Notes under the pieces: model-generated
Told to the model about the DNA's origin: nothing
The model's database searches: none
The model's input: only the letters and a program-made list of their open reading frames with translations
NCBI RefSeq assembly: GCF_019175385.1
Contig: NC_083340.1
Coordinates: forward strand, 11,668,336 to 11,732,335
DNA: 64,000 nt
Direction of reading: 5' to 3'
From: Lycium barbarum
Lineage: Eukaryota > Streptophyta > Magnoliopsida > Solanales > Solanaceae
Part shown: piece by piece, positions 1,668-59,613 of the stretch
Position numbering within the stretch: position 1 is the stretch's first letter
Layout: every line of letters begins with the position of its first letter
Program-made: the position numbers and the translations under genes

Positions 1668-1689
1668 TTAATTATTGATTATTCATTTT

Positions 1690-1777
1690 GTGTATATACA
1701 TTGCATTCTCCAGATCGGCCCAGTAACTATTGGATTCCTTTTCCATCCAAATATGGGCCTTATCCGTATTAGCCTAA
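1690..1777. repeat. Duplicated locus copy A, left segment
   Basis: Matches 18105-18186: 'ttgcattctccagatcggcc', then 'tatgggccttat', then 'gtattagcctaa'. It ends exactly at the left border of the 10.5-kb MULE. With 12308-12404 it forms one copy of a duplicated locus. Confidence 0.8.
1769..1777. repeat. Target-site duplication ttagcctaa (left), MULE
   Basis: This 9-bp word is repeated at 12308-12316 and occurs once at the unoccupied site 18178-18186. A 9-bp duplication is the Mutator hallmark. Confidence 0.85.
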
Positions 1778-2239
1778 GGAAAATTTACTGGACATAACTA
1801 CCTCTAAGACTTATTTATTAATAATAGCTACCTTTTATTTTATTTATTTTTAATAGCTTAAATTAATTTCAAAATTACCAGTTGTAACTGCTCTACAAGC
1901 GTCTCTGTATTTCCCTAAACTTACGGCCCATGTTCCCCAATAACTCCCAATCTCTTCTCTTTTCAAATTAATTTCTCTCCCATCTTCAATATCTTCAACT
2001 GTATTATACGCCCATTATCTATCATCATTATTATCACGATTCCATCTTCCTTAATCGTTACCCACACAGTGTAGGTAACGAATTTTGATAATTTATTAGA
2101 ATTTTTTTACTTTCTTTGTTGTATTTCTCTATATTTATTCTTATATTTCATCGTTTTCTTTGTTTCTTTTTCATTCCTTTTTTTTTCTGTTTTCAGCCAT
2201 TGTTAGAGTTTTTAAAACAAGATCTAATTCTCCATTTTA

Positions 2240-5200
2240 ATGGCGGAAAGAGATACTCCAAGTAGAAATACTCGAGGTAGTCCTCATGCTTATGATGGTC
2301 CTAGTTTCTCTTTGGGATTTTCACAACAACAACTTCCAATTGCAGGAGGATCTGCTAAAATTGCTGCTGAGAGAAGAAGCAAGAAGATTCATGACCCATC
2401 AAGGATGCGTCAACTTCCTCCAACTGAAGTTCCAAAACGGAGCAAGCCAAAAGATGATGTACCAATAAAAAGAGGCTCTAAAGTTGCTCAACAAAATAAG
2501 AGAAAAGTAACCAAGCCTTCTTCAGACGTTAAGGGTAAAAATGTTGTTAAAGATGTAGATCTGGAAGAGGATGAACAGGTATTGATGTAATTTTTCGATT
2601 TTGTTGTTTTGTATTTCACTATATTTTTGTATATTTCGACATAATTGGATATGCAATTCAGTATATTTCTGTATATTTAATAAAAAATATATGTGCATCA
2701 ACTGTAGTTTATATCATATACAACATAACTGTGGAAGTTGTTTTTCGTGGTTAACTGAATTTCATTATATTTCTATATTTTTTCACAAGTACATATGTTT
2801 ACTATTCTGTACTTATTGATTTTAAAAGCTGTGTTAGTTGTGTTATGCAATTTTTTTTTTGTGTGTATATTTTTCTTGGATATGCAATTCAGTATATTTC
2901 TTGTGTGTGTCTATGTTTTATACAATTGTTTCAGCCTTAACTTAGTGTTGCATTTTTATTTTAGGAAAATAAATTCTATGTTAGGAGTCATCCTGAAGAG
3001 GCTCCATCGATGCAACGGTACACTAATATCGAGGTGTTCAAAGATATCAAGAGTAAGCTAACTGTTCCACAGTGAGAGATCTTTTCCAAGACAATATTTG
3101 AGAAATTCCTCGGAATGCAGCACCTGGAGGTTCAAGCACAAATTTGTAGGTGCTTCATGGTAAGAGAGCTCAAGGAGAGCACTTCTGATTGCTTTACAAT
3201 TGATATAAATGGTACCGTATTGAAATTTACCATGAGAGAATTTGCCCTTATGAGCGGGCTAAATTGTGTAGCCGATGAAAGTGAATTTACATACGATGAG
3301 GAAGAATCGAATAGGATTATGAATGTATATTTTGGTGGAACTAGGAGTAAAGTAAAAAGATTGGAGTTCATTGATTGCTTTAAGAATAAGTGTTGGGGAG
3401 ATAATGATGAGGACGCTGTTAAGTTTGCAATTTTATTTTTTATAAATACATACATCTTTTGCGGTGAGCCTAGGAAAACGAGTATACCAAGGGTTCATTT
3501 TGAGGATGGAAGGTATGTAGATTATCCATGGGGCAAAGAAGCTTTTAACGAGTTGATTAGAAGCATCAGCAAGAAGTATTCTGCCACAACACAGTATTAT
3601 AGGATCCATGGGATGCCACTGGCTATGCAAGTTTGGCTTTATGAGTGTTGTTCAAGAGTTCCGTCGTATCTCGCTATTAAATCCGGAAATTCCATTCCAA
3701 GAATGTTGAATTGGAGGTCCATCGACAGTCAGCCAAAATATAATATTTTGATGGAAGGCATTTTTAGAGACGGCAAACAGTCGGTAATATTCGAACACTC
3801 TAACTTATTTTTATGTTTTTTTCATAGCATTTTATTTTGCAATTATGCCTTACTGATTTTAGTTTGTACTCCACTGTTCTACTGTCATATTATTGCTTTT
3901 CTGCTGGTTTTTTTTTCCTGATTTTTTGTATTTCACTATATTTCGGTGTATTTCCTGATTTTTTGTATTTCACTATTTTTTGTATTTCATTATATTTCAC
4001 TATATTTCGGTGTATTTCATAGCATTTTATTTCTTTCATCTTCAGAGTTGTACATTTGCAAATACAATCCCCACTAGCAGTGAGTTGGAGAGCCTCCAAT
4101 TGCCTGATGTTGTTGTCTGTCGAGATACAGTAGACAAAAATGTCTTAGTTGATGCCAATGAAGGTACCCAAGTCACAGATATGCCAGTGGATGACTTTGA
4201 TGATTTCAGTACTACTCCCCCCCACCTTTCGAAGGGCAAACAACAACAACGGACGAATCAGACAGATTCTCCACCTTCAAAGAGACGCAGACAACTTCCT
4301 ACAACAGCTTCCACATCTAAGAAACAACAAATCCACATCGAACCACAGACAACTGTGAAGAAGAGTCACAAGGATCAAAAGGTTGCTCAAAAGCCTATTT
4401 TACAGAAGTCTGCTTCACCAAAGTTGAATGAACAAATGAATAGACCCCAAAACACCACAGTCCTACGTGATGTCCCTACTATATCCATGAAAGAGGAAAT
4501 GCAATTGCTAAGGAAAGATTTTCAAGTTTTCAAGGAATCAGTAAGTGATTTTAGTTACGAAACAAAAAAAAAATATTGGTGTATTTACTTTACTGTTTCT
4601 AAACAAATTGAAATACTATTTTTGTTTAAATATTAGGTCATTGGTGAGTTCACAAGTGAGTTGTCAAAGCTTCGAACTTTCATGGATGACAACTTCAAGA
4701 AGCTATTTGAAGCAATCAAGGTGAACAATTCTGCGGACAAGGTAAATGTGTGAAATAGCAATTGAACTAACATTTTTAGACTCTTATTGAGAAATACAAT
4801 TTATATTAATTCATTTTTTTATGTGAAGGCTGCCGATAGTGAGGCGCCGGAGCATCAAACTGATGCTGGGCTACAGTTAACGCCTGAAGAAAACTTACGT
4901 CATGATTCTAACATTCAAACATCTCCTCCCAAACATGATGATGAGTCAATTAAGGTAAAATGAGTTTGTGACGTCAAATCCATCTTTTAAAGTTATGTTG
5001 TTGTGCATTGTATGCACAAAAAAGTATATGGTTGCCGTGTTCTAGTCTTAAATTTTAAAGTTATGTTTTCCTCGGTATTTTCTATTTTACAAACTTTCGT
5101 ATTTTATGGCGTTTCGTTTGTATTTCACTGATACAATTGTCTATTTTACAAACTTTTTTTTTTTTTGTATTTCTATGTATTTCCACCCCCACAGAATCAA

Positions 5201-7442
5201 TCTAATCCTGGCCCTATTTCTGTGTATTTAGTAATTCTCCAACCTTATATTTTTATGTTATGATTTTGTTTTAAATTTTGATTTTTTCTTATTCAAAAGG
5301 GTGTTGGACCAAAGTTACATGAGGAAGTTCCGGAAATTGTACTGACAGCCGGAAATTTAAGAGCAGATACATGTAAAGCTTCATCTGAAGAGATTAATCG
5401 GGCGGATGAAGGATCTTTCAACTCAACAGAGGTAAATTTTACATTCAATCTTATAGATCTTTTCAAGATACTGCTATACTTAACATTTATTAAATCTTTT
5501 TTTTTTTTTTAGGGAATGGTTGCAGAGATGCTCATTGAGTTGCCTCTAGAAACTCGTGTACCAGAAGCAGGTGCGGGAATACAACCCGGGGACATCACTG
5601 ATCATTCAACTTTAGAGACGCCACACAGGTTCGATGAGAACATTACTAAGTCACAATGGTTGATCCCTGACAAAATGTTACCAAGCCAAATAGGTTCGTC
5701 AGGATTATCTGTGTTTCATCAAACGGGTCACAAAGGATTTGTTATGCCAGTAATGTCTGTTGATAAAAGAATACAACAGCCAGTGATTAATGCGGAAGTT
5801 GTAATTGCTCAACCAGATGTTATTCCAACTAGGATAGTCAAACCTAGTAAGTACTTCAGTTCACCTTACATGACCAATTACGGCTCTGCAAAAGCTTCTG
5901 TTCAAGACCCCACACCTTCCATATTTGAAAAGAAGCATCCATTTGTTGAAGATCCAATTAATCCCGCGAAATACTTCGCTTATTCAACAATACCGGAATT
6001 GACTTGAACAGGATCTACTTCTAAGGCATGATAAAAAGTAAGTTTGAACGTATTTACCTTTTTAATTTATATATTCATTATTTCAGCAAAGTAAACTGTT
6101 CAAAATGAAAATAACTGATTGTTGTTATTTAGAAAGGGTAAGGAAAACCGTTACAAAAAGAATAAGCAAGCTTTGGATCCAGATGACATCAATTTTGGCT
6201 TCAACTTTGGTGTGTTACATGTTGATGACAAAAACTGGTTCTATCTCTTATCGATGAATGGCCAGTCTTGGAATGATGAGGTGCTATATTTCCCATTTCC
6301 TCTTTTCCCATATTTCTCTATATTTCTATATATTTCCCATATTTCTCGATATTCATTCTATGTATTTCTCTATATTTCCTGCATCTTGACTGCATATTTC
6401 TCTGCAGAAGCTTATTTCATTTTTTTTACCAGTATCCATTAGACTAATCTCATTTTTTTTTACAGCATATTGCTGTCATTTTTTACTACTTGCGGAAGAA
6501 AGGCAAGTATGACAAGGATAACATATTCAAATTCACAACTGTTGACTGTATGTTCTTCTCCAAAATTGATGAAATTCATCGTGCATATGCTAATCCGGAG
6601 GGGACCAGTAGTGTTGCCAGTTCGGAGAACGAAATATGCGAGTACATTAACGGGCATAGGATGTTGGCTAATGTGCCATGGCATACAATTGATTGTGTTC
6701 TCATCCCTGTCAACATCAAAGAGGAAAATCACTGGATCTTGATTATAGTGCCATTCACTGACAGGTATTCCTACTTTTAAAAAAAAAAAATCATTAAATC
6801 TGCATATCTCCCTGTATGTTCCTCGTATTTCTATCCTACAAGGTCCGTATGAAATTTAATTTACCAACCTGTTAACCGAGCTGATGTAATATGCTTTTAC
6901 GTGCAAGCGTATGTACATCTACAACTCATACCGAGCTGTTGGTCATGATGTTGTTGTTAGAAGAGAAATACACAAGATAGCTACCCTATTGTCACATCAT
7001 TTACGTTTGTCTGGATTTTATGAGAAACAAAAAGGCATCGATTGGATTAATCACCCATCATACAAGGGCAAACAACACACTGATGACTTTCATGTCATGT
7101 ATGTGAACGACTTGCCACAACAAGCCTCTGGCAGCATGTATGTCTTTCAACATCAGAGTTCCATTTGTTTTTCAAAATTCTCAACCAATAATCATTTTTA
7201 TTTTTAATTTTTTCAGGGATTGTGGTGTATATATTGCCACATTTGCTGAATACTTTTGTTCTGGACGAGGCGTTCCATCTGAAATTGATGCAGAAACACT
7301 ACGTAATAGATACGGGGCATTACTATGGGAATACGGATGGCAAAAGGCTGATTTGAATGCCTTCAGTGACAATGAACTGCCGCCAAGACCAGTTAGATCT
7401 GTCATAGATTACAATGCGGTCGCCACAGTAGTTGTTAATTAG
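2240..7442 (+). pseudogene. DUF1985 / Ulp1-like C48 cysteine protease gene of the MULE, disabled
   Basis: Eleven probable exons: 2240-2578, 2965-3783, 4046-4540, 4637-4741, 4829-4954, 5300-5431, 5513-about 6037, 6133-6280, 6466-6764, about 6908-7137 and 7217-7442, with GT/AG borders. Exon 2 encodes a DUF1985 domain (start about 3160, 'FTMREFALMSGLNC'). The central exons are Ser/Gln/Lys-rich linker. The last exons form a Ulp1-type protease with His in ENHW (6730-6732) and Cys in DCGVY (7221-7223). The position normally held by the catalytic Asp reads Asn (IYNSY, about 6920). Defects: an in-frame TGA at 3073-3075; a one-base frameshift near 6005 that exposes stops before the protease domain; and the 6764/6908 junction is out of phase by one base. 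Such proteases are thought to act on SUMO-like conjugates; the role inside the transposon is unknown. Confidence 0.85.
3918..4022 (+). repeat. Cluster of the 'tatttcactatatttc' motif in an intron
   Basis: Within the second intron of the protease gene, 'gtatttcactatatttc' and close variants occur about five times in 100 bases, often followed by 'ggtgtatttc'. Related clusters lie at about 2608-2690, 6288-6380, 7733-7831, 8590-8680, 9400-9500, 10150-10240, 10940-11090 and 12175-12215, and inside the small relative at 18300-18380 and 18720-19030. All are in introns, intergenic DNA or near the termini, not in exons. Confidence 0.7.
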
Positions 7443-8825
7443 TCCACTAGGTTTTAATGTTGAATCGATTTTCACAGTACTATTTTGTTGACCATTTTTC
7501 TACATTTTGTTGTGTTGTTTTGTAAAGAATTGACAAATGACAGTGTTTTTTCATCAATGACTTAACTAATTTCTTTCACTACTATTTTTTGTTTAAGTCT
7601 CCCATATTTTTATTTATCGTTTAATGAAAACAACCTCTGGTGTATTTTCAATATATTCCAATGTTATATACCCACTCTTCAATTCGACAAATTATTCCAG
7701 GTGAACTGGAATACTCTTACATTTTGAACACTGAAATACAGAGAAATACACCGAAATATAGTGAAATGTAAAAACAAAATATAGTGAAAATGCAAAACGA
7801 AATACACCGAAATATAGTGAAATATAAAAATCAGGGTTGTAATTCCAGCACCTGCTTCTGGTTATTCCATTCCTAATGCAACTTAATATTTCTTAAACAT
7901 TTCACTTATTTTTCATTTTAATGTCCGTTAACACTGAATTGTATGCATTATTATTATGAAAATGAAGGACAAAAATTACAGAATACAAAAATGAACAAGC
8001 CTCTGGCAGCATGTATGTCTTTCAACATCAAAGTTCCATTTTTTTTTTCAAAATTCTCAACCAATAATCATTTTTATTTTTTATTTTTTCAGGGATTGTG
8101 GTGTGTATGTTGCCGCATTTTGCTGAATACTTTTTTTCTGGACGAGGCGTTCCATCTAAAATTGATGCAGAAACACTACGTAATAGATACGGGGCATTAC
8201 TATGGGAATACGGATGACAAAAGGCTGATTTGAATGCCTTCAGTGACAATGAACTGCCGCCAAGACCAGTTAGGCCTGCCATAGATTACAACGCGATCCA
8301 CACAGTAGTTGTTAATTAGTCCACTAGGTTGTAATGTTGAATCGTTTTTCACAGTACTGTTTTGCTGACCATTTTTCTACATTTTGTTGTGTTGTTTTGT
8401 AAAGAATTGACAAATGGCAATGTTTTTTCATCAATGACTTAACTATTTTTTGTTTAAGTCTCCCATATTTTTATTTATCGTTTAATGAAAACAGCCTCTG
8501 GTGCATTTTCAATATATTCCAATGTTATATACCCACTCTTCAATTCGACAAATTATTCCAGGTGAACTGGAATACTCTTACATTTTGAACACTGAAATAC
8601 ACAGAAATATAGTGAAATGTAAAAAAAAATATAGTGAAAATGCAAAAGGAAATACACCGAAATATAGTGAACTACAAAAAATCAGGGTTGTATTCCAACC
8701 CTAATGCAACTTAATATTTCTTAAACATTTCACTTATTTTTCATTTTAATGTACGGTAACACCGAATTGTATGCAATATTATTTATGAAAATGAAGGACA
8801 AAAATTACAGAATACAACAATGAAC
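7119..8825 (+). repeat. Direct duplication of the protease gene 3' end (two units of about 0.85 kb)
   Basis: Unit 1 is about 7119-7993 and unit 2 about 7994-8825. Both start at 'aacaagcctctggcagcatg', include the last intron, the final exon and the 3' flank, and end near 'gaatacaa(a/c)aatga'. Unit 2's exon copy is broken: an extra T near 8118 shifts the frame, and the Trp codon in 'tacggatgacaa' has become TGA near 8215. Unit 2 lacks the catalytic His segment and cannot be functional alone. Confidence 0.9.
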
Positions 8826-8894
8826 TAAAAATTTCTTTATTTAATATTTTTGGGGATAAGGTATTTAAAAAAAAAACAATTACAATCTAAACAT

Positions 8895-11886
8895 CTACTT
8901 CTTACGTGGCTCATTGGAACAAGAACGTCTATTGTGACCAGGACGTCCACAAGTACTACAAGCATTCCTACGTTTACCAATCATCGTCTCCATTAATGGT
9001 TTATCTCGCTTTTTCTTTGGCCTTCCCGGGGGTCTCTTGTATCTTGGTGGCAAAACAACTTCATCTCTTATGTGTTTGGGAATATTTCACTCACTCTCGT
9101 CAGGCAGAGGATCCACAGGCACATCATACGTCTTAATCACTGTCTTTGGTTTGAATAGGTCTGAACAATATTCATCAGACATAAGACTTTTACTCTTCAA
9201 TACAGCCCATGCATGTGGACATGGTATCTCGTCCATTTGGAACATCCGACAACTGCATGTTTTCTTTTTAAGATCAATTATGAATCGCCTTGCCTCATCA
9301 TTTATGGTATATACATATTCAGTTGATGGTTCAACCTAATCAAGACGAAATGTGTCAGACCAGAATACATTGAATATTAACAACGATAAGTAATATGAAA
9401 TACATGGAAATATACAATCCAAACAGAATTACTTAATATGAAATACATGGAAATATACAATCCAAACAGAATTACTTAAGTACCTTCTAAAATATGCTGA
9501 AATATATGTAGGCAGACTTCAACAAAATAAACAGTAACATACCGTCATATGTAGAGATTTACATTCATTTATTGATAATAATTGTTGGAATGCTTTCCCA
9601 AGTGTTGTGAATGTGTATGTACCGTTCCTCCTATTAGTGCAATTCCATCTCCCAAACATCTTCCTCACTTCTTCAAGAAAATCGAAAACAGGCAACTCTC
9701 TTGCTGCTACCAATTTTCCATTAATACATTCGGCTATATTTGACGTCATTGTCCATCCTCTGTTAACGGGTGAATACAGTCGAGCCCACTTTTCCCTTCC
9801 AGCATCCTCCAAGTACTCTTTTACCCGAAAATCAACCTTCTCAATCTTCTCCATCAGCTTATCAAACTCAGCCTGTGTGTATGCTTTTGCAAGTGCATAG
9901 AATACAGGACTCAATACTTCACCATTCGACTTGTATTTCGTGGTCACATTTTTCCATAAATGCCATATGCACGCCAAATGTGGCACAGTTGGATACACTC
10001 TACTCACCGCCTTAATGATGCTCTCATGTCTGTCTGATACAACACACATGTTATCCCTATTCCCATAAGCTTGTTTGAACTGCTCAAGACTTATCGTTCT
10101 CTGAATCTATCACACCATATGCCAATGGTAGAATATTACCTGCACATACATGTTTTTGTGTATTACTACAGTGAAATATAGCATAAAGCATATTGGAAAT
10201 ACATTAGAAATATAATCAAATACAACGAAATATACCAAAAACAGAAAAAATGTATTTAAACATTTTGGCATCTACCTACACCATCCAACGTGCTGGCTGA
10301 TACAAAAGTACCGTTATATGTAGTTTTAAGGTGGGAACCATCTACTACAACTATTGGTCTACAACACTCGAAGCCTTTTATGAACGCTTTAAGTGCTATA
10401 AACAAATACAAGAACTCGTTTTGTTGTGATTTGTGCATTCTCACATGTGATCCAGGGTATGTTTTATCCAATATGTAGACATATCCCAGTAACTTCTTGT
10501 ATGATTCTGTTGGTTCCCCTCTTAATTCATTCATTGCCTTTTCTCTAGCCCTCCAGGCCGTCATATAAGAAACATCAATGCCATACTCATTTTTTACGTC
10601 GTCTACTATATCACCAGGTGTATATTTCCTCTTGTGATTTGATATTTTTGGCTTAACAACTGACGCACCAATCAACCAACTGGTTTCTTGCCTTTGGGAA
10701 TACACTTTGTCCTTCAATGGACACGTATGTTCGTCATGAAAAAATCTCACTCTGAACATTTCAGAGTTCGCAATACTTGAAGCTCTGAATTTCCAATGAC
10801 AATCAGTTGAACAACATACCAGAGTGTAACTACATAAACCAATACAAGAAAAGAACAGTCAGATTGAAGTTTCAAACACATACAACATCATAAATACATT
10901 GTCTATATATACTGAAATGGTTAGATAATGGAATTAAATAATTCAAACAGTTCGTATTTCACTATATTTAATTAAATCCAACTGAAATGTAATGGTAATA
11001 CAACAGTTTACGTCACTGTATATCAATGCATTTCTTAGTATATTTCAATATATTTCATAGTATATTTTAATGTATTTCATATTTTTAGGTGACTAACATA
11101 CCTTACGGCATTCGACCTCTCTGTCCTGAAATTGAATCTTTTGCGAATTGCATAATTTGCCATAACATTCTTCAGAGTGTCCTTATCTTTGTAGATTTGA
11201 TCAACAAAAACATCCTTATGTTCCTTGTTTGAAATTATCAAGTCACCGTTGTTTTGAAATAAAACAACAGCCTTAGCACAATCTGACGCATCCAAATCAT
11301 TTGAATCAACTACGTCCATAGCATACATATAATCATTAAATTCAAGTTGAAACATATCGTCTCCAACTGCAGATTCGCCAGACACAAAATTCTCAAGATC
11401 ATTATCAGTTATGCTAACGCACAACGGATATGCTTCAAATCCCCTGTTTTCTCTCTTAAGCTCAACATACACCCTTACTCCCATATTGTTGCGTATTTCA
11501 ATTGGCATGTTGTCTCCTTCAACAGCATATTTTATTGATATCGTTTTCCTGCTAATATCAACACCTAACTGATTTGCTATAGTTTCAACCAAATCACCGT
11601 ATGAACAATAATCTTTGAAGACAACTGCGTCTAGTTTGTAATCAACAAAGCAATTCTGTTCATTCCAAAAATCGGAGTGTCTGATCACTGTTGTTATGCT
11701 TGACATGTTTCGTTTTGATAATTCAACAAAACTAGAAGAACATTGACTGCATTGGAAAAAAAATTCATCGTTCCAATAACAGAAAATTGAATTAAAAAAA
11801 TCACACAAATCATTGAAAATTTGAAACATACCTTTTGTAGAATCTGAAATACAAATCTGATCTTCACTAAAATTCCATATATACAC
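8895..11886 (-). pseudogene. MULE transposase (MuDR N-domain, DDE core, SWIM, zinc knuckle), disabled
   Basis: Read on the minus strand as four exons: 11886-11102, 10829-10276, 10139-9543 and 9335-8895, all with GT/AG borders and consistent phases at the first two joins. Exon 1 is the MULE-specific N-terminal region. Exon 2 has the MuDR zinc-binding segment (DCHWKF...HTCPL) and the first catalytic Asp in VVVDGSH. Exon 3 has the second Asp in VVSDRHESI and Glu in NIAECING. Exon 4 has a SWIM zinc finger (CSCRMFQMDEIPCPHAW) and a C-terminal knuckle (CSTCGRPGHNRRSC). Defects: a frameshift near 10095-10100 between VIDSENDKS and LEQFKQAYG, and a TGA at 9087-9089 where family members have Trp. It convergently faces the protease gene. 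It would bind the element's ends and catalyse excision and insertion if intact. Confidence 0.88.
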
Positions 11887-12307
11887 TCGTTCGTATCTTA
11901 TTGAGTGTATTTCGAATTGATTTTTGAAGAATTTGAATGTAGAAAATAGAGCTCAGAGAGATACTTCTGTAGTTGGATCTTTTTAGATCTTCAGTATTTT
12001 TTTGAATTCAAAAAGTTTTGATTGTGATAGAAGTGGAGAGAGATACGTAATCTGTTATGGAAGAACATTCATTATGCGTGATTAATGGGTAGATTTAAAC
12101 TGAATCCCCGAATTTTAAAAAAAAAAATCTTTTCCATAAATACGGCCTAATTTTACTCAGCAGTGTCGGACGTTCCGTGTATTTCAGTATATTTCAAACA
12201 AATGAAATACACGCGTTTCAACTAAAAAACCAGCTACGCTTAGTAAATAACAATTTTATAGCTATTTCTTGTTACAAGCTACTAAAAGGTAGCTATTTAT
12301 GTAAGTT

Positions 12308-12404
12308 TTAGCCTAAACTGTGTTGGAAAAGGATTTCCAGTACAATTAGAATTATTAGGAAAGTCCTAATTTGATATTTATTTGGATTACAAGCTTCTAG
12401 GCGG
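12308..12404. repeat. Duplicated locus copy A, right segment
   Basis: Begins with the second ttagcctaa. Matches 18178-18210 ('actgtgttggaaaaggattt') and then 19672-19726 ('taggaaagtcctaatttgat', 'ggattacaagct'). Homology stops after 'acaagct', so the SAP gene body expected downstream is missing from this copy. Confidence 0.8.
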
Positions 12405-12713
12405 CTATCGGCGGATGGGACGGATAATTATACTTAATAGTTTGGTTTATCGATTATCTGCTTTTAATGTATTAATCTGTTAACCAACCAATAATATCAG
12501 TTGGTTCGGTATCGGGTTAGCAATTATTGGGCGGTTATTGGACGGTGTATCATCTAAATCTAAGTGACGATGAAAATTAAAATCACAATGTATAGTCACA
12601 TTAAAATCACAGCTTCCAATTCTTTATGACAACTGCTTTTGCAAATATAAAACAACGAAACCTTTCAAGTTAAAAGTCATGGTGATGACAAGATAGAGGA
12701 GGGAGAGGGATAG
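12405..12713. other. Non-coding segment rich in 'atcgg/ttatcg' words
   Basis: Contains words such as 'ggtttatcgattatc', 'ccaataatatc' and 'ggttcggtatcgggtta'. Similar words occur inverted at 17960-18090, on the other side of the retrotransposon. This could be one small transposon split by the LTR element, but I cannot define its ends. Confidence 0.35.
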
Positions 12714-13350
12714 TGATACAAGACTAACTCCATCGAGCTTCATGAAGATGGAGTCTTTGAAGATCATGGGAGGTCCACATAGGATGGCCTTCAAGATATG
12801 GGAGATAGCTTGGATGGAAGGCTTCATGAACGTCACATTCAAGATATGGAAGATAGCTTGGGAGGATATTTGGAGAAGGAGGCTATGCATGCAAAAGGGG
12901 CTAGTACTTAAATGCAAGCCTTTTCAAGTTTCACTTCCATGGAAGACACCCAAACAAAACCCTTACTTCATTAAGGGTATAATTGTAATAATGTAGTGTC
13001 TTCTATTACTTAGTTAGTATTAATAGCTAGTCTTTTATTTCATTAGGGGACTTTTGACTTTTGATTAATTGATAAATTGATGAGTGATTTTGAGAGTTGT
13101 CTCTAGAGAGAGAAACTTGTGAGAGAGGCCATGGATGACTCTTGTTGATTTGATTGTTGAGAGGTTGGTTGCTTGGGAATTCAATTCCCTTGAGGTCAAC
13201 TTAAGAGTTAGATGCTAATTAGTTGTGTAATTAGGAGGTCAAGACTTTAATATAGTTTTGGTTGCTTAATTCTCTCTAATCTTGTGTCTATCTTTCTATC
13301 CTTTACTTTCCTTGTTATTTTATTGCTTTCGCGTATCCGTTATTGTATGA
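12714..13350 (+). repeat. Left LTR of the permuted-ORF retrotransposon
   Basis: Nearly identical to 17120-17748 from 'tacaagactaactccatcga' to 'gcgtatccgttattgtatga'. The main difference visible is a short insertion 'ttaattga' near 13062-13070. The exact first bases are uncertain because the two copies share only 'TG' before 'tacaag'. Confidence 0.85.
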
Positions 13351-13352
13351 AT

Positions 13353-13364
13353 TGGTATCAGAGC
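13353..13364 (+). promoter_or_regulatory. Primer-binding site, initiator-Met tRNA
   Basis: TGGTATCAGAGC lies two bases after the left LTR. It is the standard complement of the 3' end of plant initiator-Met tRNA used by many plant LTR elements. Confidence 0.85.
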
Positions 13365-14025
13365 TTAGCTTAGGTTTGTTCCATCAAATCTAGTCTTGGG
13401 TTTTGATTCTACAAAAAAAAAAAAATCGAAATTCCAAAAAAAAAAAAAAAAAAACTGAAATTCGAAAATTCAAATTCGTGTTTGATCTGTCCTTTTTTGT
13501 TGTTTTTGACACTAGATTTGAGTTTCCTAGTGTTTTTTGAGTCTAGATCTTGAGTTTCAAGTTATTTGGAGTCATATTAAGTCATTCACCATTGTTGGAG
13601 CTTGAAGGTTTTAGAACTTGAAGGTGGGTTTTGAAGAAGAAGTAGAAATTAGAGCTTGAAAGTCATTGGGTTGTGTTCTCCTAGTGAAGAAGGTTAAGAA
13701 TCCAAAATTTGAAGTAATTTGGAGTCTTTTTGAAGGATCTACCATTGTTGAAGTTTAAAGCTTTAAAGAACTCAAGAACTTGAAAAGTGGGTCTCGTGAT
13801 TCGGTTGAAATTGAAGGTTGAAACCTATTGGGTTTTGTTCTCTACATCAAAGAGAATTTAAATCCGAAATTTGAGCTAATTTGAAGTTGGTTTGAGGGTA
13901 GTTGAATTTTTGAATTGTTCTTGTGTTCTTGAAGAACTTAAATCTTCATAAGGAAGAAGACTCTCCAAAAGGTCATTTGATCCAAAAGTTGTCAAATAAA
14001 GTTGTGAAAAAGTGTTTTTGAAAAA

Positions 14026-14062
14026 AAAAATCAGAAATACTTAGTCTAAGTTTCTGATTTTT
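14026..14062 (+). other. Stem-loop in the retrotransposon leader
   Basis: 'aatcagaaatacttag' pairs with 'ctaagtttctgatt', leaving a two-base bulge and almost no loop; A and T runs extend the stem. It lies in the untranslated leader between the primer-binding site and the ORF, a region that in retroelements often carries packaging or dimerisation signals. That role here is inference. Confidence 0.5.
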
Positions 14063-14852
14063 CAAAAAAAAAAAATCCACATCATCTGCCACGTCAGCCG
14101 CCACATCAGCGATGACATCAGCGGTCTGACGCGCCTCTGACGCGCGCGTGGGGTCCAAATTCAGAGAGTAGGATTTTCCAACACTTAGAAAAAATTCCTA
14201 AGTGTTGACAGATTTTGGTCCAAATTTGAGGGGGCATATCTTTGTATGTATAAGGAGTTACGGAACCCATAATATATGTAAATTCAAGTTCAGAGAGTCT
14301 ACTTTCCGAATAAACAAGCCGTTCATCAATCAGAGGTCTGAAGAAAAAGTTATGGGCGTTATAAAAACGTGATGCAAGCAGTTCCGAATTTTCTAAGTGT
14401 TGGCTAAAAACTTCCCAAATTTGTCTAAGTGTTTGGCCAAGGTTTGTTCACTTCTTCTTCTCATTTCTTTGATTCTTACAACTAGTTAACAACTAGTAAT
14501 CGATCTTATTAGTTGCTAACTAGTTCTTGAGTCCTATTTTCATTCGTACCAATTCTTTCAATCTTTTCTTCGTTTTACCTCGTTGTTAATTTCTTGGCTC
14601 AAGTGCGTTTGTTTAATTGAGTCGTCCTCGTTCTTCTTGAGTCTACAAGAATCCATTCCGATCTCGAGTAGTAATTGTGCACCTTGCAACTAACCGAATC
14701 CAATCGAGAATCAACATCGGCTAATCCAATTGAGTGGTAAAAGGCAAGAGTGTGTAAGTTCATTCGGGTGGTGCTAGCCAATCACAAAAGAGTGTAAACA
14801 TGAGTGTGGTGAGTTTTCTTTACTACTAACGTGTTTTATAAGTATTCTTTAC

Positions 14853-17119
14853 ATGTACTACTCCATGGATAGAAGATGTCACTCAATGCTAATGAGGGTG
14901 TTGAAAGAGGAGAGGATTCGTCTTGAAATTGATGACTCTTTTAGTGAATGCTATGTTACTCCTAGTCTTGTGGTTGGGTTGGGGTTATCTATAGTGAAAA
15001 ACGCAAAACAAAAGGGAAGGTTAACTAATGTGGCATATGTGCCTTTCTCTTATGGGGAATACCATGAGGAAGTGTGTTGTGAAATACTCCCTATGGACAA
15101 TTGTGACGTGTGCTTTGGGTTTGCTTGGTTTGAAGACCATGGGATTGCGGATGAACAAAATTGGCATAAGTATGTTGTGAATGAACGGGGGACACCTCTA
15201 TTTCCAAACATACTTCATAGAACGAATCCAAGGATAAAGGTGCAAGAGCCCAATGTGAGTTGGCCTACCTTATGTATGAGCGCTAGTGGTGAAGAGTTTT
15301 ATGAATGGGAACTCATGATGGACGAAATCTTTGCTAGCTACAACTACTCACGACTAAGGAAGATGGACTTAGCCGTTCAAACTTTTGACTCAAAACTTGT
15401 CAAATATTGGGAGTATGTGAAATGTTGTGGGAGACAAGTGAGGAGTCCCATCAAAACTTGGGAGGACATGAAAAGGATATTGAGAAGCCAATATCCCAAG
15501 CCACATGTGAGAAGAAATGAATCTTTGAGGGGTACCTCTTTCGAGAGAACCTCATGCTTGAAGGCAAAGACGGCGGCCACAACCATTCCTTCCATTAGTC
15601 AAAGGAGCTTGCATGAACACCAAGGTAAGATCACTTATCCTTATACTCCTACATCTTTGTGTGATTTTAACGTCAAGACAAGCATGAAAGTTAGTTTACC
15701 TTGCGTTAAGCCTAATGCTTCTTTGCCTTGTATTAATAATGCCATTGTTGAAAGTGTCCCCACACTAGTTGATCCTATTGATGACCGAATTGTTCCTTCT
15801 TGTAAGGTCGATTTGTGTCCACCTAGTGTTGACACTTGTGCTTTGAATGATAGTTCATTATCGAATAAAGGTGCTCAAACACTAGTTGATCCTTTAGATG
15901 ACAAAATTGATTCTTCTTGCAAGATCAATTTGTGTCCACCTAGTGTTGACATTTGTGAATTGATTGGTAGTACAATGTCATGTGGTCATCATGTTAGTAA
16001 TCCTTGCGAGTTTGACATACTACCAACTAGTGTTGATCAACTTGCTTGTAATGATAATTCACTACTTGAGGATCCTTGTGATGTGTTTAATGTACCTCTA
16101 GTTAGTGATAATGTTGATATAGTTGGTCAATTGAAAGAATGTGACATCTCACCCTTATTTGTTTCATGTCAAAATGGGTCTCTTGATCGTACTCTAGTGT
16201 CATGTGATAAGACTCCAAGTTGTAGTGGTGCTGTGTGTCATGTAGATAGTCATGTGAGCAAAAATACATTGAAAGATAACATTGGTTCTTTTCAGAGTGA
16301 AATGACATGCTTTGACTCCTCATTGTTCATGGATTACTCTCTTGTAAAGGATAATGTTTTATTGGAGGATGACATGACTAGTGAGAGTGATGAACCTAGT
16401 GGGGTGTTTGGTAATGTTGAACGTTTAGTTTCCTTTGGAGGCTATAATGTGATATGTAACCCACTATAGGATGAAGACACTCTTTCCCATGATGGAGATC
16501 TTCCTTTGAGGAATTGTGATCCATTTGTGGGGAAGGAAAGTGTTACAAAAGAAGGTAATTCTTGTTTAGAAATTGCAAATTCTTCCTTTCATCTTCAACT
16601 TCATAGTAACCACTTGGATAATCTTGTCCTTGAACCGTATGGTGAGGTTACATTGGGGAGTGATATTGATGAGGAAGTTATTTTACGTGATACCTTTCTT
16701 TATTACTTGTTTGCATATGATGACATTCTTGAGCATATAGGGTGGGCATCTTATGGGGGAGAAGGCTCTTATGATCTAGCCGATTATGTTCTTGACCACA
16801 CTAGATGGATGTTCGTTCCCTTTGATCCGGGTGACACCTTGTGTGATTTGAGAGCACTATCTTGGGGTAGTCCTTGTTTGAAAAATGAGAGTGTTCTTGT
16901 TTGGACCTTATGCTACACGTCAAATAGAACCAATGTCGAGTTGCATACTTCGTATTTTGAATCCATTGGTTTTATTACTCTATCCTTATGTCATGAACCT
17001 TGGAGGAATCAACTTTTTGATACCTCATGTGTGCAAATGTTAGTCATGATTGTCATAGATGTGTGGTTGCACCACAAGTTTGTTCATCCTTGGCACGAAT
17101 ATGTGATTATTGCGTTGTG
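14853..17119 (+). pseudogene. Retroelement ORF: protease-like segment followed by gag-like segment
   Basis: An open frame from ATG 14853 runs to TAG 16467-16469 and continues in the same frame into the right LTR. Residues about 20-130 resemble the Ty3/gypsy retropepsin-like region (SLVVGLGL, VPFSYGEYHEEVCCEILPM, then CDVCFGFAWF), but the catalytic DSG/DTG motif reads DDS. Residues about 147-220 resemble the gag core (YEWE, then KTWEDMKRILRSQYPKPH). The rest is Asp/Ser/Cys-rich with two imperfect repeats containing 'CPPSVD'. The usual order in these elements is gag then protease; here it is reversed. No CCHC knuckle or polymerase is present. A structural rather than enzymatic role seems more likely, if it has any. 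Confidence 0.6.
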
Positions 17120-17748
17120 TGCTACAAGACTAACTCCATCGAGCTTCATGAAGATGGAGTCTTTGAAGATCATGGGAGGTCCACATAGGATGGCCTTCAA
17201 GATATGGGAGATAGCTTGGATGGAAGGCTTCATGAACGTCACATTCAAGATATGGAAGATAGCTTGGGAGGCTATTTGGAGAAGGAGGCTATGCATGCAA
17301 AAGGGGCTAGTACTTAAATGCAAGCCTTTTCAAGTTTCACTTCCATGGAAGACACCTAAACAAGGCCCTTACTTCATTAAGGGTATAATTGTAATAATGT
17401 AATGTCTTTTATTACTTAGTTAGTATAAATAGCTAGTCTTTTATTTCATTAGGGGACTTTTGACTTTTGATAAATTGATGAGTGATTTTGAGAGTTGTCT
17501 CTAGAGAGAGAAACTTGTGAGAGAGGCCATGGATGTCTCTTGTTGATTTGATTGTTGAGAGGTTGGTTGCTTGGGAATTCAATTCCCTTGAGGTCAACTT
17601 AAGAGTTAGGTGGTAATTAGTTGTGTAATTAGGAGGTCAAGACTTTAATATAGTTTTGGTTGCTTAATTCTCTCTAATCTTGTGTCTATCTTTCTATCCT
17701 TTACTTTCCTTGTTATTTTATTGCTTTCGCGTATCCGTTATTGTATGA
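17120..17748 (+). repeat. Right LTR of the permuted-ORF retrotransposon
   Basis: Direct repeat of 12714-13350. The upstream ORF reads straight into it, and no purine-rich tract precedes it. By contrast, a purine-rich stretch 'agaggagggagaggga' lies before the left LTR, which is unusual. Confidence 0.85.
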
Positions 17749-17752
17749 ATAG

Positions 17753-18104
17753 AGAGTGCAAAACGAATAAATAAATAAATAACTTTCTGAGTTTCACACT
17801 GTCAAGTGAGAATATGTCTATGTTGCAAAAAGTAGTAAGATAAATGCAGGGGAAGAGGTTTTGGGGAAATTTCTTATTTACGACTACCATTTTGAGACCA
17901 TTCTGTCGCATGAAGTAAATGAAGTGTGCAACAACCCTATTCTTGTACTTAAAATTCACTTAAAATCATTCATATAATTCTTATCAGGTTAATGATTTAT
18001 CCAATAAGGAAATTAAGTAATCCACCCCGCACCGATAAATCGTTAATTATAAAATTCTAATTCATTCACTAACCATTAATCCGATAACCAATAAGACAAT
18101 TTGT
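17753..18104. other. AT-rich non-coding segment
   Basis: No gene recognised. The final 140 bases carry 'ccgataaatcgttaattata' and 'taatccgataaccaataag', echoing in inverse the DNA at 12405-12560. Confidence 0.35.
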
Positions 18105-18219
18105 GGTATATAACTCGCATTGCATTCTCCAGATCGGCCCACTAAGTATTGGACTCATAATATGGGCCTTATCTGTATTAGCCTAAACTGTGTTGGAAAA
18201 GGATTTCCAAATATATTAA
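18105..18219. repeat. Duplicated locus copy B, left segment with the empty MULE site
   Basis: Collinear with 1690-1777 joined directly to 12317 onward. The single ttagcctaa at 18178-18186 reads 'gtattagcctaaactgtg', the sequence expected before the 10.5-kb MULE inserted in copy A. The segment ends at the small MULE's target duplication atatattaa (18211-18219). Confidence 0.85.
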
Positions 18220-19655
18220 GGGAAAATTACACAAATAGCTACCTTTTAATAGCTTCTAACTAGTTATAGCTACAAGTTGAAAATTTACAATTCATAGCTG
18301 CTTTTGGCTGTATTTCAGTTGTATCTCGCATTTTTGAAATACAGTGAAATATAGCGAAATACCGAGAAATACAAAACACGTCAGAGTAAATTTAGGCTCT
18401 CTTTTGGAACATATTTTTTTAAAAAATTCTGAGAGAAAAAATAGGCTATATTTTTTTAACATAATATCCTTTTCCTTTTTAAATAGTAAGTCAAATTAAA
18501 TCAATCATATTTTACACAAATCACTGAAGAATAAAATCAGGCCCTATTTATGGAACATTTTAAAAATAAATTATGGGATTCAATTTAAAATTTCCCATAA
18601 ATCATGCAAAACGGTTGTTCTTCCATAAAAGCTTACGAATCTCTCTCAACTTTTATCACAATCAAAACTTTTTGAATTCAAAAACCACTAAAGATCTAAA
18701 AACTTCCAAATACAGAAAAATATACACTGAAATATAGTGAAATTTGGTTAATTATTTAAGAAATATAAAGTTGCAGTATGCATATATACAATGGAATACA
18801 ATGAAATATATCATAAACTGTTTCATAAATTAGAAATACAAAATGCAGAAATACAGCGAAATACAAAAGTCGTGAAAACAAAGCGTAGTCAAAATAGGCT
18901 CTATATTTGGAACATTCACTATATTTACACCAAAGAAAAAAAAAAGATAAATACATTGAAACGCAACGGAATAATATACTGAAATACATTGAAAATTAAA
19001 TATACTGTTTGTTAATACACTGAAACATACTGAAACATCTTATCAAACACTTGGTGGGCATGAAGCTCCACAACTCTCATCAATGGTGTTCTCATGGGAA
19101 AAAATCGAGTCGTCTCAGATTGCTACAAAAAGGACATTATCCGGAGATAAAGACTTTCAATTGGACAAATTAATAAAGCTTCACTCCATCGTCCTTCACC
19201 GTTGTTAGATCTCTTTTTTTTTCATTCCGTCATCGACCATGGCTTCACTCCGTCGTCGACCATGGCTGCTGCTAATACTGTAGGATTCTTCTGATTTGTA
19301 AGAGAAAATGAGATCTAGGGTAGGTGATGGAACAAAGGGAGAAAGAGGGGTAAGGCAGAAAATAAATTTGGTAGGTGAGAGAAAATCAATTTAAAAGACT
19401 AGGAGATGGAACGGAGAGAGAAATGGGGGTGAGGAAGAAAACAGATTTGATAGGTGAGAGAAAAATATTTGAAAAAAAAAATTGTGGATAAGTAGGAGAG
19501 AGATACCTTATTTTTTTAAGGAAATACACTACAGTTACAAAAACAAGTTATAGATGGTAATTTGATAAATAATTATGCTACCAAATATAATTAAAAAAAA
19601 GGTAGTTATTACTAATAAATAAGTCTTAGATGTAGTTATGGGCTGTAAATTTCCC
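18220..19655. mobile_element. Non-autonomous MULE, 1.4 kb, relative of the 10.5-kb element
   Basis: The terminal inverted repeats are 'gggaaaattac' and the complement of 'gtaaatttccc'. A perfect 9-bp duplication atatattaa lies at 18211-18219 and 19656-19664. Its left 100 bases match the complement of the large MULE's right end, and its right 80 bases ('aaataagtcttagatgtagt') match the complement of the large MULE's left end, so it lies in opposite orientation. Subterminal DNA ('acaatcaaaactttttgaat') also matches the complement of 11995-12030. It carries the 'gaaatatagtgaaat' motif but no coding sequence. It is a candidate substrate for the larger element's transposase. Confidence 0.88.
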
Positions 19656-19726
19656 ATATATTAATGGGTATAAAATTAGGAAAGTCCTAATTTGATGTTT
19701 ATTAGGATTACAAGCTCCCACTATAT
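19656..19726. repeat. Duplicated locus copy B, right segment
   Basis: Begins with the second atatattaa and matches copy A's right segment ('aaattaggaaagtcctaatt', 'ggattacaagct'). In this copy it continues into the SAP promoter and gene. Confidence 0.8.
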
Positions 19727-19730
19727 ATAG
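19719..19730 (+). promoter_or_regulatory. TATA box of the SAP pseudogene
   Basis: 'cactatatatag' lies 114 bases before the ATG at 19844, a normal distance for a plant 5' leader. The small MULE sits only 64 bases upstream, so it separates any distal promoter elements. Confidence 0.55.
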
Positions 19731-19843
19731 CCCTAAATACAACACCACATGCACTCACTAGCTATAGCATAACTATATTACAACCAAAGACTGGAAAGGG
19801 CAAAATATATCATTGAAGAAGTTTTTCATTCGAAGAGCAAAAA

Positions 19844-21477
19844 ATGACTTCTTGTGATAAAGGAGAAAACCCAATTTTTTGCGCAAGCACAAGCACTTAC
19901 AACCTTTGTTCTCAACGCTACAAAAAATTCTTGAAAGAAAAAGCTGCGAAGGATGCATTTGTTTTATCTGAAAAGATATCCTCTTACTATTAAAACTGAA
20001 AAAGATAATTCAACTTTAAAGACGAAGACGCAAAGGTGCATGAATTTGCAAGAAGAAGGTGGGATTAATAGGGTTCAGTTGTAAGTGTGGTGAAATATAT
20101 TGCAGTAATCATACATATCCGGAGGAACATGCACTTTTGATTTCAAGTCTATAGGCCGAGCAATTTTGGCTCAAGAAAACATTTTTTTGCGCGGATTGCC
20201 CTTCTTTTGGGGTGATCTTTAAATTTTGTCCCTCATATTTGTGGTCTTTAAATTATGCCCTCGTATTGCTGGTCTTTAATTTTTGCCCTTCGCATTGCAA
20301 CACTGAGCGTTCACGCAGAAATCATGAGGTTCTGAGTTCGAACCCCAGCTCAAGCATAAATTAAAAAAGAAAACTGCAAGGCAAGGTTTGGGTCGCATGT
20401 ATGCCGGACCCGTCATAAAGTTATGAAGGAATTACCAAAGTTATGCCGGACCCGACATACTCATGCCTTATGGGCAAACTTGGCATAAGTATGCCGGGTC
20501 CAGCATAACTTTGGTAATTCCTTCATAAGTTTATGTCGGGTCCGGCATAACTTTGAGATCTCATGTCAACTTTTTATAGATTTTTAGTAACATCAAAATG
20601 CTCTATTAAAATTCAAGTGGTTTTGTGTCAATGTGGCCTAAAGACTTTCTTTGCTACATTTCCTGTATTTGATATATTATAACTGCTCTTGTTAATATAT
20701 TATGGGGTAGTGTTAGAAAAGAGTAGTTGTCGTGATTTTGTTCCATTATATCTAAGCCTAGTTTTTCATGAGTATTAACACTATGATAATTGTTGACAGC
20801 ATTTGCATGACGATGAGTGGAAGAGGCCACGCACAAAGTTTTTACTATGAAGCCTTTTAGTTCTGTAATAATATTGGAAGGGGGACAATGAAATTCTTCC
20901 TAGGTACCCTTATCCGGTGGGGGCATACTTTTAATGGGCAAACTTTTATGCCGGACCAGACATAAACTTGTGAAGGAATTACCAAAGTTACACCGGACCC
21001 GGCATACTTATGCTAAGTCTGCCCATAAGGCATAAGTATGCCGGGACCGGCATAAGTTTGGTAATTCCTTAACAAGTTTATGCCGTTGGGGGCATACTTT
21101 TAATGGGCAAACTTTTATGCCGGATCCGGCATAAACTTGTGAAGGAATTACCAAAGTTATGCCGGACCCGACATACTTATGCCAAGTCTGTCCATAAGGC
21201 ATAAGTAGCCGGGTCCGGCATAACTTTGGTAATTCCTTCACAAGTGTATGCCGGTGGGGGCATAGCGAATTTAAACTCTGCCTTGCGAATTTTTTTTAAA
21301 ATTTTGACTGTGTGGGGGTTCGAACTTGGAACCCATGGGATTTAGCCGAAGGGCAAAACTTAAAGATTTTAAATATGAGGGGCAAAATTTAAAGACCACC
21401 CCAAAAGAAGGGCATTTCTGCGAATTGCCCGAGAAAATCCTGTCTGCAAGGCTGATAAACTTGAGAATAGGATCTAA
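19844..21477 (+). pseudogene. A20/AN1 zinc-finger stress-associated protein (SAP), broken
   Basis: The ATG at 19844 opens a 49-codon frame ending in TAA at 19991. 'NLCSQRYKKFLKE' is a recognisable A20 finger, but the early Cys residues are missing and one late Cys is Arg. Downstream, after frameshifts, come the AN1 finger start (RCMNLQEEGGINR, with Cys and other residues changed), then FSCKCGEIYC..HTYPEEH, then FDFKSIGRAILAQEN. The final residues PVCKADKLENRI and the stop TAA (21475-21477) are separated from it by a 1.25-kb insertion. Intact SAPs are about 150-200-residue zinc-finger proteins linked to ubiquitin binding and stress tolerance. This copy has several independent lesions and is certainly non-functional. 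Confidence 0.85.
20181..21429. mobile_element. Fold-back element with long inverted termini, inserted in the SAP pseudogene
   Basis: About 150 bases at each end are inverted copies: 'tgcccttcttttggggtg' at 20198 and the complement of 'caccccaaaagaagggca' at 21397-21414. Both termini contain 'gttcgaac'. The middle is a series of inverted modules built on 'atgccggacccggcat' and 'ttggtaattccttca'. It interrupts the codons for AQEN|PVC; flanking caagaaaac and cgagaaaat look like a 9-bp duplication with two mismatches. No ORF of note. Confidence 0.8.
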
Positions 21478-25220: not shown

Positions 25221-26699
25221 ATTAGGGTCACGACCCAATTCGCGAGTCGTGGTGGCACCTACACTATCCCTCCGAGTAGGCGAACCACATTACTAATAAC
25301 AAGTTAAATAAGCGGAAAATTAAATAAGAATAAGTTATCAAGTCTTAAATACTTATCATAACTAGAAATGTCACGACTACCCTAAAATCTGGTCAAAGGG
25401 TACAAGAGCGCTAACATAGTGCGGAATATAAGTCTGAAAATACCCGAAGGCTACATATTGTCTGTCGAATATAAAAACAGAACTAAATAAAGGAGGTCCT
25501 TCAGGGGCCACGGATGACCAAGTAGCTCACCCTGAATGACTGAAAGATGTCACCTTTGCGTATCAACCACGGAGTGTAGAACTGGAGCCTGGATCGTACT
25601 CTGCACTCAACAAAAAGTGCAGCAAGAGTAGTATTAGTACAACACTAGTACCAGTAAGCATCATAGGCCGACAATGATTAGATAACACATGAAGAAGTGG
25701 AAACTAACAAGTAGCACATAGAGCAAATAGGTGTAGTCACGTATCATATATAAGTAAAGTGTAAAGGAATCATGAAATCAACCAAGACAAATATAGTTCA
25801 CCAGATGATCAGTCAAATATATGATTGAATGAATGCAATGCAACAGTCACCTCTCTCACTCCACTCTCGTACACACATGCTAAGGGCAGTGCCTCGAAGC
25901 CATGACCCATGGGGGACCTGCGAAGTCTATGTACCACTGTTGCTCTCCGGAAAAACCCTCAGAGGCTATCAATCACTCTCAATCTCTGGCAAAGACCTCG
26001 GAGTCTCTCTATCACTCTCAATCTCCGGCAAAGACCTCGGAGTCTCTCAATCACTCACCTCACCAATCATCACAACAATAATATGGAAAGCATGTCATGC
26101 ATGATATCAGTCTCAACAATATCACCAATATGAAATCAACAAGTACAAGTCATATTACTGTCCACTGTTCAATTATCAATATTACCATTCCTTTTTATGT
26201 GATGAGTGAGCTAGTATGTGACGGAAATACAAACAGATGATAATCACAGAAAATAACATATACGGAGACAAGCCCACATAACAGCTGACAGAACCAACTT
26301 AATTGGAAATTACCTCCACTTCATGCCCGAAGGCCTATCATGCTATCCCCGTCATTTTCTACAACTACATACGATTCTCTAATCAGAGTCTAACTAAAGT
26401 AGACCGTAACCTACCTCAAGGCCGAGCGGGTGCCACGAACACTCAAACTTGACCTTTTCCCTTCCTGAGCGCTTCCGAATGAACAATGTCTATCAAATAT
26501 ATAACTTACGTTAATTATGAGTCTAAATATTAACTTAGGATTAAAATCCCACTTCCTACTGTTGACACCCAATTTTGTCCCACCTCTCCTCCGAAATACC
26601 TATTTACGCTTCTAACATCTTTGGAAAATTAAAAAAATATATTTTATATTTTTTACTATAATCAATATCGGCGTTTCATTATTCTATTACAATTACTAG

Positions 26700-26815
26700 C
26701 CATTATTATTATTATTATTATTTATTATTATTATTATTATTATATTATTATTATTATTATTATTTATTATTATTATTATTATATTATTATTATTATTATT
26801 TATTATTATTATTAT
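26700..26815. repeat. (ATT)n microsatellite in the left LTR
   Basis: Runs of ATT interrupted by short T/A slips. The matching tract in the right LTR (about 36810-36865) is roughly 60 bases shorter. Confidence 0.95.
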
Positions 26816-27651: not shown

Positions 27652-27661
27652 TTCATTTTTT
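27652..27661 (+). promoter_or_regulatory. Probable LTR TATA box
   Basis: TCTATAAATA lies after the pyrimidine-rich block and about 20 bases before the first LTR ATG (27673). The right LTR has TCTATAAGTA here, one base weaker. Confidence 0.5.
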
Positions 27662-30600: not shown

Positions 30601-30941
30601 TAAGCAGTTCATTAGCAGCATTACAAGCCCACTTCTTGAAATTTAAATGCTACATCTTTAATTTCAATTAATTAACCTAAGTTTGGTTGGATAACCGTGA
30701 GTTAACGGATTCTAAAGGATGCCTAACCCCTTCCCTTTAGGATAATATAGAGCCCTTACCTAGAATCATACTGGTTAAGCAGATTATTAATTGAGGTTTA
30801 GTTTTAACTTTACCTTAGTTAACATTTAGGTGTCCTAATTCACCGTTAAATTAATTAGGTGGCGACTCCTTAAATAAAATAAATAGGAATCACCAATACG
30901 TCATACTCCTAACATCCGGGTTGAAATGGGGTGTGACAGCT

Positions 30942-35145: not shown

Positions 35146-35148
35146 TTT

Positions 35149-50666: not shown

Positions 50667-50673
50667 ACCATCT

Positions 50674-59611: not shown

Positions 59612-59613
<2 letters not shown>

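What the first reader, a model, noticed from the sequence alone, without database searches (positions are those of the whole stretch)
1769..18186. Filled and empty sites of the same MULE within one duplicated locus
The 10.5-kb MULE is flanked by ttagcctaa on both sides in copy A. Copy B, about 6 kb to the right of its end, holds the same flanks joined with a single ttagcctaa. This fixes the element's borders and the 9-bp duplication, and shows that the locus was duplicated before the MULE inserted (or that the MULE excised perfectly from copy B, less likely).
Basis: seen in the sequence. Interest (0 to 1): 0.75.

Follow-up and report, generated by a model that had tools for sequence, protein, structure and literature searches.

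The report
Jumping gene beside its empty site
In a stretch of plant DNA that looks like goji (Lycium), a 10.5-kb jumping gene sits in one of two copies of a short sequence while the other copy still shows the unoccupied landing site and carries a small relative of the same element; such a pair is ordinary, but both elements share a repeated DNA word that may be the target of their own anti-silencing protein.

Summary
Confirmed: a 10,530-bp MULE (1778-12307) lies between two TTAGCCTAA (1769, 12308), and its flanks stand joined with a single TTAGCCTAA at 18178. The best-scoring joins are exactly the ten that a 9-bp duplication predicts. Corrections: the shared block is only about 175 bp and stops sharply at both edges, so "duplicated locus" is too large a word; copy B runs into a TATA-like box and an AN1-finger pseudogene; and B is itself occupied, 33 bp further on, by a 1,436-bp gene-less MULE of the same family, inverted, with its own 9-bp duplication (ATATATTAA). 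The copies are reciprocally filled and empty. The large element is a Kaonashi/KIU-type MULE (transposase plus DUF1985-Ulp1 gene), closest to Lycium proteins; both genes are broken here. Beyond the finding: GAAATACA occurs 28 times in the large and 8 times in the small element against 3 in the other 51,998 bp, nearly always outside exons and often in 10-bp steps, as Arabidopsis VANC target motifs do; I propose, unproved, that it is the KIU target. Whether the 175-bp block is a dispersed repeat could not be tested: the genome search did not complete.

The parts
1684..1777 (+). Copy A, left part of the shared block; 1769-1777 is the left TTAGCCTAA
1778..12307 (.). Large KIU-type MULE, 10,530 bp; poor terminal inverted repeats (the two ends align at 54.5% over 325 columns)
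   Evidence: borders; ends:
2240..7439 (+). KIU-like gene: DUF1985 exon near 2971-3783, Ulp1/C48 exons near 6418-7439; in-frame stop at 3073 against relative P0001
7994..8825 (+). Tandem second copy of 7119-7996 (last Ulp1 exon and following sequence), 90% identical
8898..11706 (-). MULE transposase gene (MULE domain, SWIM finger, zinc knuckle seen by eye); frame change near 10087 and in-frame stop near 9089 against relative P0056
12308..12395 (+). Copy A, right part of the shared block; 12308-12316 is the right TTAGCCTAA
12713..17750 (+). LTR retrotransposon between A and B (LTRs 12713-13352 and 17119-17750, 621 of 640 columns identical); no Pfam hit in its two long frames, gag-like by eye only
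18097..18219 (+). Copy B, left part; 18178-18186 is the single TTAGCCTAA (empty site), 18211-18219 the left ATATATTAA of the small MULE
18220..19655 (-). Small MULE, 1,436 bp, no gene found; its ends match the large MULE's ends in inverted order
19656..19716 (+). Right ATATATTAA of the small MULE (19656-19664) and copy B, right part, to 19716
19717..20151 (+). TATA-like box (19722-19730) and frameshifted gene remains with an AN1 zinc finger (20062-20151); A20-like stretch from 19844 seen by eye only, not called by Pfam
3927..4018 (-). Example of a GAAATAYA array in 10-bp steps inside the large MULE; others near 6285-6378, 7733-7826, 8594-8666, 9397-9506, 10173-10234, 11039-11079
18309..18373 (.). 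GAAATAYA array in the small MULE; a second at 18729-18865

Best explanation
Two copies of a short (about 175 bp) sequence, probably promoter-side DNA of an A20/AN1-type gene (B still attached to the gene's remains, A a detached partial copy), were each hit once by the same MULE family. The 10.5-kb KIU-type element entered copy A at TTAGCCTAA by cut-and-paste transposition with a 9-bp staggered cut, and copy B keeps the unoccupied target. In a separate event a 1.4-kb gene-less relative entered copy B 33 bp further on, in the opposite orientation, with a different 9-bp duplication, and copy A lacks it. Both targets lie within 100 bp upstream of B's TATA-like box, the zone that Mu-type elements favour. 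An LTR retrotransposon also came to lie between the copies. Shown: borders, both 9-bp duplications, reciprocal occupancy, family relation, broken genes. Inferred: promoter nature of the block, order of events, that the small element moves by the transposase of a relative.
For: Exact-join test; single TTAGCCTAA in B; second duplication ATATATTAA at 18211 and 19656; end-to-end similarity of the two elements, 68-79% over about 210 bp at three places, in inverted order; distances of 90 and 57 bp to the TATA-like box; Mu and Pack-MULE insertions peak near or just upstream of transcription starts (PMC7337890, passages); AN1 finger 29.1 bits against cut-off 27.9.
Against: The shared block is so short that a dispersed repeat is not excluded. 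A's counterpart of the small element's target is diverged, so that second empty site is less clean than the first. Copy A has no TATA-like box after 12395, so its promoter nature rests on B alone. The A20 part of the pseudogene was not recognised by Pfam.
Confidence: 0.75

Rival explanations
1. The shared block is a small dispersed repeat; A and B are two of many copies and each MULE simply landed in one. The empty-site logic stays, the local-duplication story goes.
For: Homology is only about 175 bp and ends sharply on both sides; flanks unrelated.
Against: No third copy in 64 kb; B's block runs straight into a TATA-like box and gene remains; the two copies have the same orientation and would lie about 0.7 kb apart without the three insertions (coordinates).
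Confidence: 0.2
2. The MULE was in the ancestral block and was excised without a trace from copy B.
For: B's sequence across the site cannot tell perfect excision from never-filled.
Against: Needs a footprint-free excision as well as the earlier insertion; no extra bases at 18178-18186.
Confidence: 0.04
3. Assembly artefact: two haplotypes or a chimera placed side by side.
For: Filled and empty versions a few kb apart are what unpurged haplotypes can look like.
Against: Haplotypes would share kilobases of flank; here about 175 bp with about 6% substitutions and large indels are shared.
Confidence: 0.02

Closest known systems
Kaonashi (KI/KIU) MULEs of Arabidopsis and Ulp1-bearing MULEs of melon, rice and grapevine
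   Same: MULE with poor terminal inverted repeats, 9-bp target duplication, transposase on one strand and a Ulp1/C48 gene in reverse orientation (described in passages of PMC2528002, PMC13317346 and PMC6117577)
   Different: Lycium-type sequence; Asn at the position of the catalytic Asp; tandem-duplicated last Ulp1 exon; both genes broken in this copy
VANDAL elements with VANC anti-silencing proteins (Arabidopsis)
   Same: DUF1985 protein; short motif piled up in non-coding parts as tandem repeats (PMC5735166 passages and section 9; PMC10398659 passages)
   Different: The motif is another one (GAAATAYA against YAGTATTAY or AGTTGTMC); no binding or methylation evidence here
Related-to-empty-site (RESite) analysis of plant DNA transposons
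   Same: A paralogous unoccupied site defines borders and target-site duplication (the term occurs in the papers listed; listing only)
   Different: Here the empty site lies 5.9 kb away and is itself hit by a second family member, so that each copy serves as the other's empty site

Membership tests
MULE (Mutator superfamily) | MULE/MuDR-type transposase | tested here: met
   PF10551 40.9 bits (cut-off 27.6); SWIM 41 bits; closest hit P0056, 89% identity. Reading frame broken in this copy.
MULE (Mutator superfamily) | target-site duplication of about 9 bp | tested here: met
   9 bp for the large and 9 bp for the small element.
Kaonashi/KIU-type MULE | Ulp1/C48 gene in reverse orientation to the transposase | tested here: met
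   C48 60.2 bits on joined exons, + strand; transposase on - strand.
Kaonashi/KIU-type MULE | DUF1985 (VANC-like) part in the same gene as Ulp1 | tested here: met
   PF09331 97.1 bits; P0001 and P0002 carry both domains in one annotated protein and align along 2240-7439.
Kaonashi/KIU-type MULE | absence of clear terminal inverted repeats | tested here: inconclusive
   Ends align at only 54.5% over 325 columns but share a short similar start.
Active Ulp1/C48 cysteine protease | catalytic His-Asp-Cys set | tested here: not met
   His, Gln and Cys present, Asp replaced by Asn (alignments to SENP1; column). Works-like is left open; the gene also has a stop.
[quoted passage not shown]
   GAAATACA 28, 8 and 3 times in large, small and rest; 26 of 28 outside mapped exons; 10-bp spacing.
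VANC anti-silencing system | the protein binds the motif and the element loses DNA methylation | not testable with these tools
   Needs a binding assay and methylation data.

The most novel reading that the evidence does not exclude
GAAATAYA, stacked in 10-bp (about one helical turn) steps in the non-coding parts of both elements, is the binding site of a Lycium KIU (DUF1985-Ulp1) anti-silencing protein, and the gene-less small MULE carries its own arrays so that a KIU made elsewhere in the genome opens it in trans; the Ulp1 part of this Lycium clade works with Asn in place of the catalytic Asp, or serves as a binding module.
Probability: 0.4. Interest if true: 0.6.

Novelty: new member of a known kind. 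Interest (0 to 1): 0.35.

Why it matters
The pair of sites fixes the ends of a KIU-type MULE family of Lycium type to the base, which is hard to do from a single copy in a class with poor terminal repeats. With exact ends its non-autonomous partner is recognised, and the motif that the two share gives a directly testable target for a KIU-type anti-silencing protein outside Arabidopsis.

Tried and rejected
Considered and rejected: (1) one LTR pair explaining A and B: the direct repeat 12713-13352/17119-17750 is a separate LTR retrotransposon; order and identity differ from A/B. (2) A and B as parts of a longer duplication: flanks compared, no extension. (3) The small element as a product of the same insertion event: different duplication, opposite orientation. 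(4) Motif excess as mere base composition: in 300 shuffles each that keep 2-, 3- or 4-mers, neither element's counts of GAAATACA or GAAATA[CT]A were reached.

Controls that weaken the motif reading: other 10.5-kb slices of the window have 8-mers enriched as much or more (for example 22 against 0). On looking up their places, CCGGCATA lies wholly within 20400-21254 and 21 of 22 ATACCCGC within 35167-36069 (local repeats), ACTAGTGG within repeats at 42-51 kb, while AATTTGAA is scattered over the window with an excess at 57-64 kb. GAAATACA by contrast lies in 20 separate places of the two elements. GAAATATA alone is enriched only 5.6-fold (27 in the large, 4 in the small element, 23 in the rest). 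The relaxed GAAATA[CT] occurs 54 times in the rest examined for spacing (12317-18210 and 19665-64000; 1-1768 left out) but with no pair at 10 or 20 bp. Introns of both genes tend to carry the T-rich strand as sense, which accounts for part of the strand pattern. The binomial value for exon avoidance ignores clustering, and the exon map is by eye plus tblastn.

One search for VANC motifs in Solanaceae listed two papers, neither of which I searched for this motif (of one I saw other passages); this is no proof of absence.

Full report
The observation. TTAGCCTAA is found at 1769, 12308 and 18178 and nowhere else on either strand. Joining 1684-1777 to 12317-12395 in a script and aligning with B (18097-18219 plus 19665-19716) gives score 109; 1966 random joins of the same sizes gave at most 24. 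Sliding both edges (26 x 25 joins), the ten equally best joins are 1768/12308 through 1777/12317, exactly the set that a 9-bp duplication allows. The MULE is therefore 1778-12307, 10,530 bp. The finding is confirmed at base resolution.

What the shared sequence is. It is short: 149 of 185 alignment columns identical, 22 gap columns. Beyond it neither side aligns, apart from a separate 70% repeat (583-787/21553-21768) and one weak inverted hit. In B the block runs straight into TATATATAG (19722-19730); 114 bp on, a reading starts at 19844, and at 20062-20151 a piece in another frame has an AN1 zinc finger (29.1 bits, cut-off 27.9). With an A20-like stretch seen by eye only, I take this for an A20/AN1-type (stress-associated protein) pseudogene. 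So the block looks like upstream promoter sequence, of which A is a partial copy. I could not test dispersal: the own-genome search did not complete in 14 tries. In the window there is no third copy.

Copy B is not pristine. 33 bp after the empty TTAGCCTAA it carries a 1,436-bp element (18220-19655) between two copies of ATATATTAA (18211 and 19656). Its ends match the large MULE's ends in inverted order: 18522-18730 with 12165-11953 at 79%, 19443-19655 with 1994-1778 at 71%, 18224-18434 with 12307-12105 at 68%. It is a gene-less relative. Different duplications and orientations mean two insertions. Copy A lacks it, though its target there has diverged. Each copy is thus the other's empty site. 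With the small element left out, the two target sites lie 90 and 57 bp upstream of B's TATA-like box; Mu insertions in maize are enriched near transcription starts and Pack-MULEs just upstream of them (PMC7337890, passages). Between A and B lies an LTR retrotransposon (LTRs 12713-13352/17119-17750, 621 of 640 columns identical). With assumed rates of 6.1e-9 to 1.3e-8 (recalled), K2P distances give about 2.5-5.3 My for A/B and 0.7-1.4 My for the LTRs; A/B rests on 162 sites, so this is no more than a rough order, and it does not date either MULE.

The large element. On the + strand lie DUF1985 (97.1 bits) and Ulp1/C48 (22.5 bits in one exon; 60.2 bits on joined exons); on the - strand the MULE transposase domain (40.9 bits) and a SWIM finger (41 bits). 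The best of 55 KIU hits is Lycium barbarum P0001 (88% in its best local stretch, 57% of the query), and the best of 255 transposase hits (120 listed) is L. barbarum P0056 (89%). Among 39 KIU hits and 46 of the listed transposase hits whose LOC numbers I compared (not every LOC-numbered transposase hit was typed in), four pairs bear consecutive numbers, and both members of each pair are listed on a contig of the same length: three pairs in Lycium, one in tobacco. The two-gene layout thus recurs. That the window is from Lycium is an inference from these hits. Against these relatives the window's transposase has a frame change near 10087 and an in-frame stop near 9089, and the KIU gene an in-frame stop at 3073: this copy is decayed, while relatives with open frames exist. 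The layout agrees with Kaonashi MULEs (PMC2528002, PMC13317346, PMC6117577; passages).

Side result one, the protease. His, Gln and Cys of the catalytic set are present but the Asp position holds Asn (SENP1 alignment). Of 55 KIU hits, 23 gave a protease segment of 90 residues or more and 21 of these a letter at that column: 10 Asn, all Lycium, and 11 Asp, one of them Lycium. P0001-P0003 as annotated pass from the His exon straight to the Cys exon, so for the closest relatives the residue is not seen. Asn at the third catalytic position is normal in papain-like proteases (recalled), so loss of activity does not follow.

Side result two, the motif. GAAATACA occurs 28 times in the large element, 8 times in the small one and 3 times in the remaining 51,998 bp; shuffles that preserve 2-, 3- or 4-mers, 300 each, never reached this in either element. 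26 of 28 lie outside the mapped exons, which make up half of the element (binomial 1.5e-6, ignoring clustering); for GAAATAYA it is 52 of 55, in 19 clusters; leaving out the second copy of the tandem duplication, 26 GAAATACA remain. Same-strand GAAATA[CT] pairs at 10-bp spacing: 19 in the large, 4 in the small, 0 in the rest examined. Tandem Repeats Finder on 1-22000 gave 7 rows of period 10, 6 of them in the two MULEs, 5 of these with this motif. The small element's cluster at 18729-18858 lies at or beyond the end of its best homology with the large one (18730), but weaker matches to other arrays of the large element cover it, so independent build-up and common descent cannot be told apart. 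[quoted passage not shown] PMC10398659, passages); a review says that Ulp1-bearing VANCs do likewise (PMC13317346, passages). By analogy GAAATAYA is the candidate target here. A control that tempers this: other slices of the window show equally enriched 8-mers, most of those looked up lying in local repeats.

Verdict. A clean but ordinary filled/empty pair of a known kind, made more useful by the reciprocal second insertion and by the motif that both elements share.

Noticed in passing
1778-12307 and 18220-19655: GAAATACA/GAAATATA word enriched in both MULEs, mostly outside exons and in 10-bp steps; candidate target of a KIU/VANC-like anti-silencing protein.
   Followed up: partly
6890-7165: Ulp1 exon has Asn where C48 proteases have the catalytic Asp; shared by 10 of 21 related proteins, all of them Lycium.
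   Followed up: partly
7119-8825: Tandem duplication (about 875 bp, 90% identical) of the last Ulp1 exon and following sequence inside the MULE.
   Followed up: partly
20197-21414: Foldback-like element of nested direct and inverted repeats with the word GCCGGCATA/TATGCCGG, downstream of the AN1 pseudogene.
   Followed up: no
1063-1649: A 587-bp stretch that is its own inverted repeat (about 70%), immediately left of copy A.
   Followed up: no
26560-30941 and 36667-41284: Direct repeats of about 4.4 kb, 96-99% identical, on both sides of a gag frame (31859-33724): probably an LTR retrotransposon with very long LTRs.
   Followed up: no
35145-36115: Minisatellite-like array between those repeats, 80-90% identical at offsets of about 82 bp and its multiples, with 8-mers recurring about every 41 bp.
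   Followed up: no
41632-42987, 45809-50667: Direct repeat 45809-48156/48375-50667 (93%) whose parts recur inverted at 41632-42987 (84%).
   Followed up: no
57561-62774: Tandem array with a unit of about 825 bp, copies 84-90% identical.
   Followed up: no
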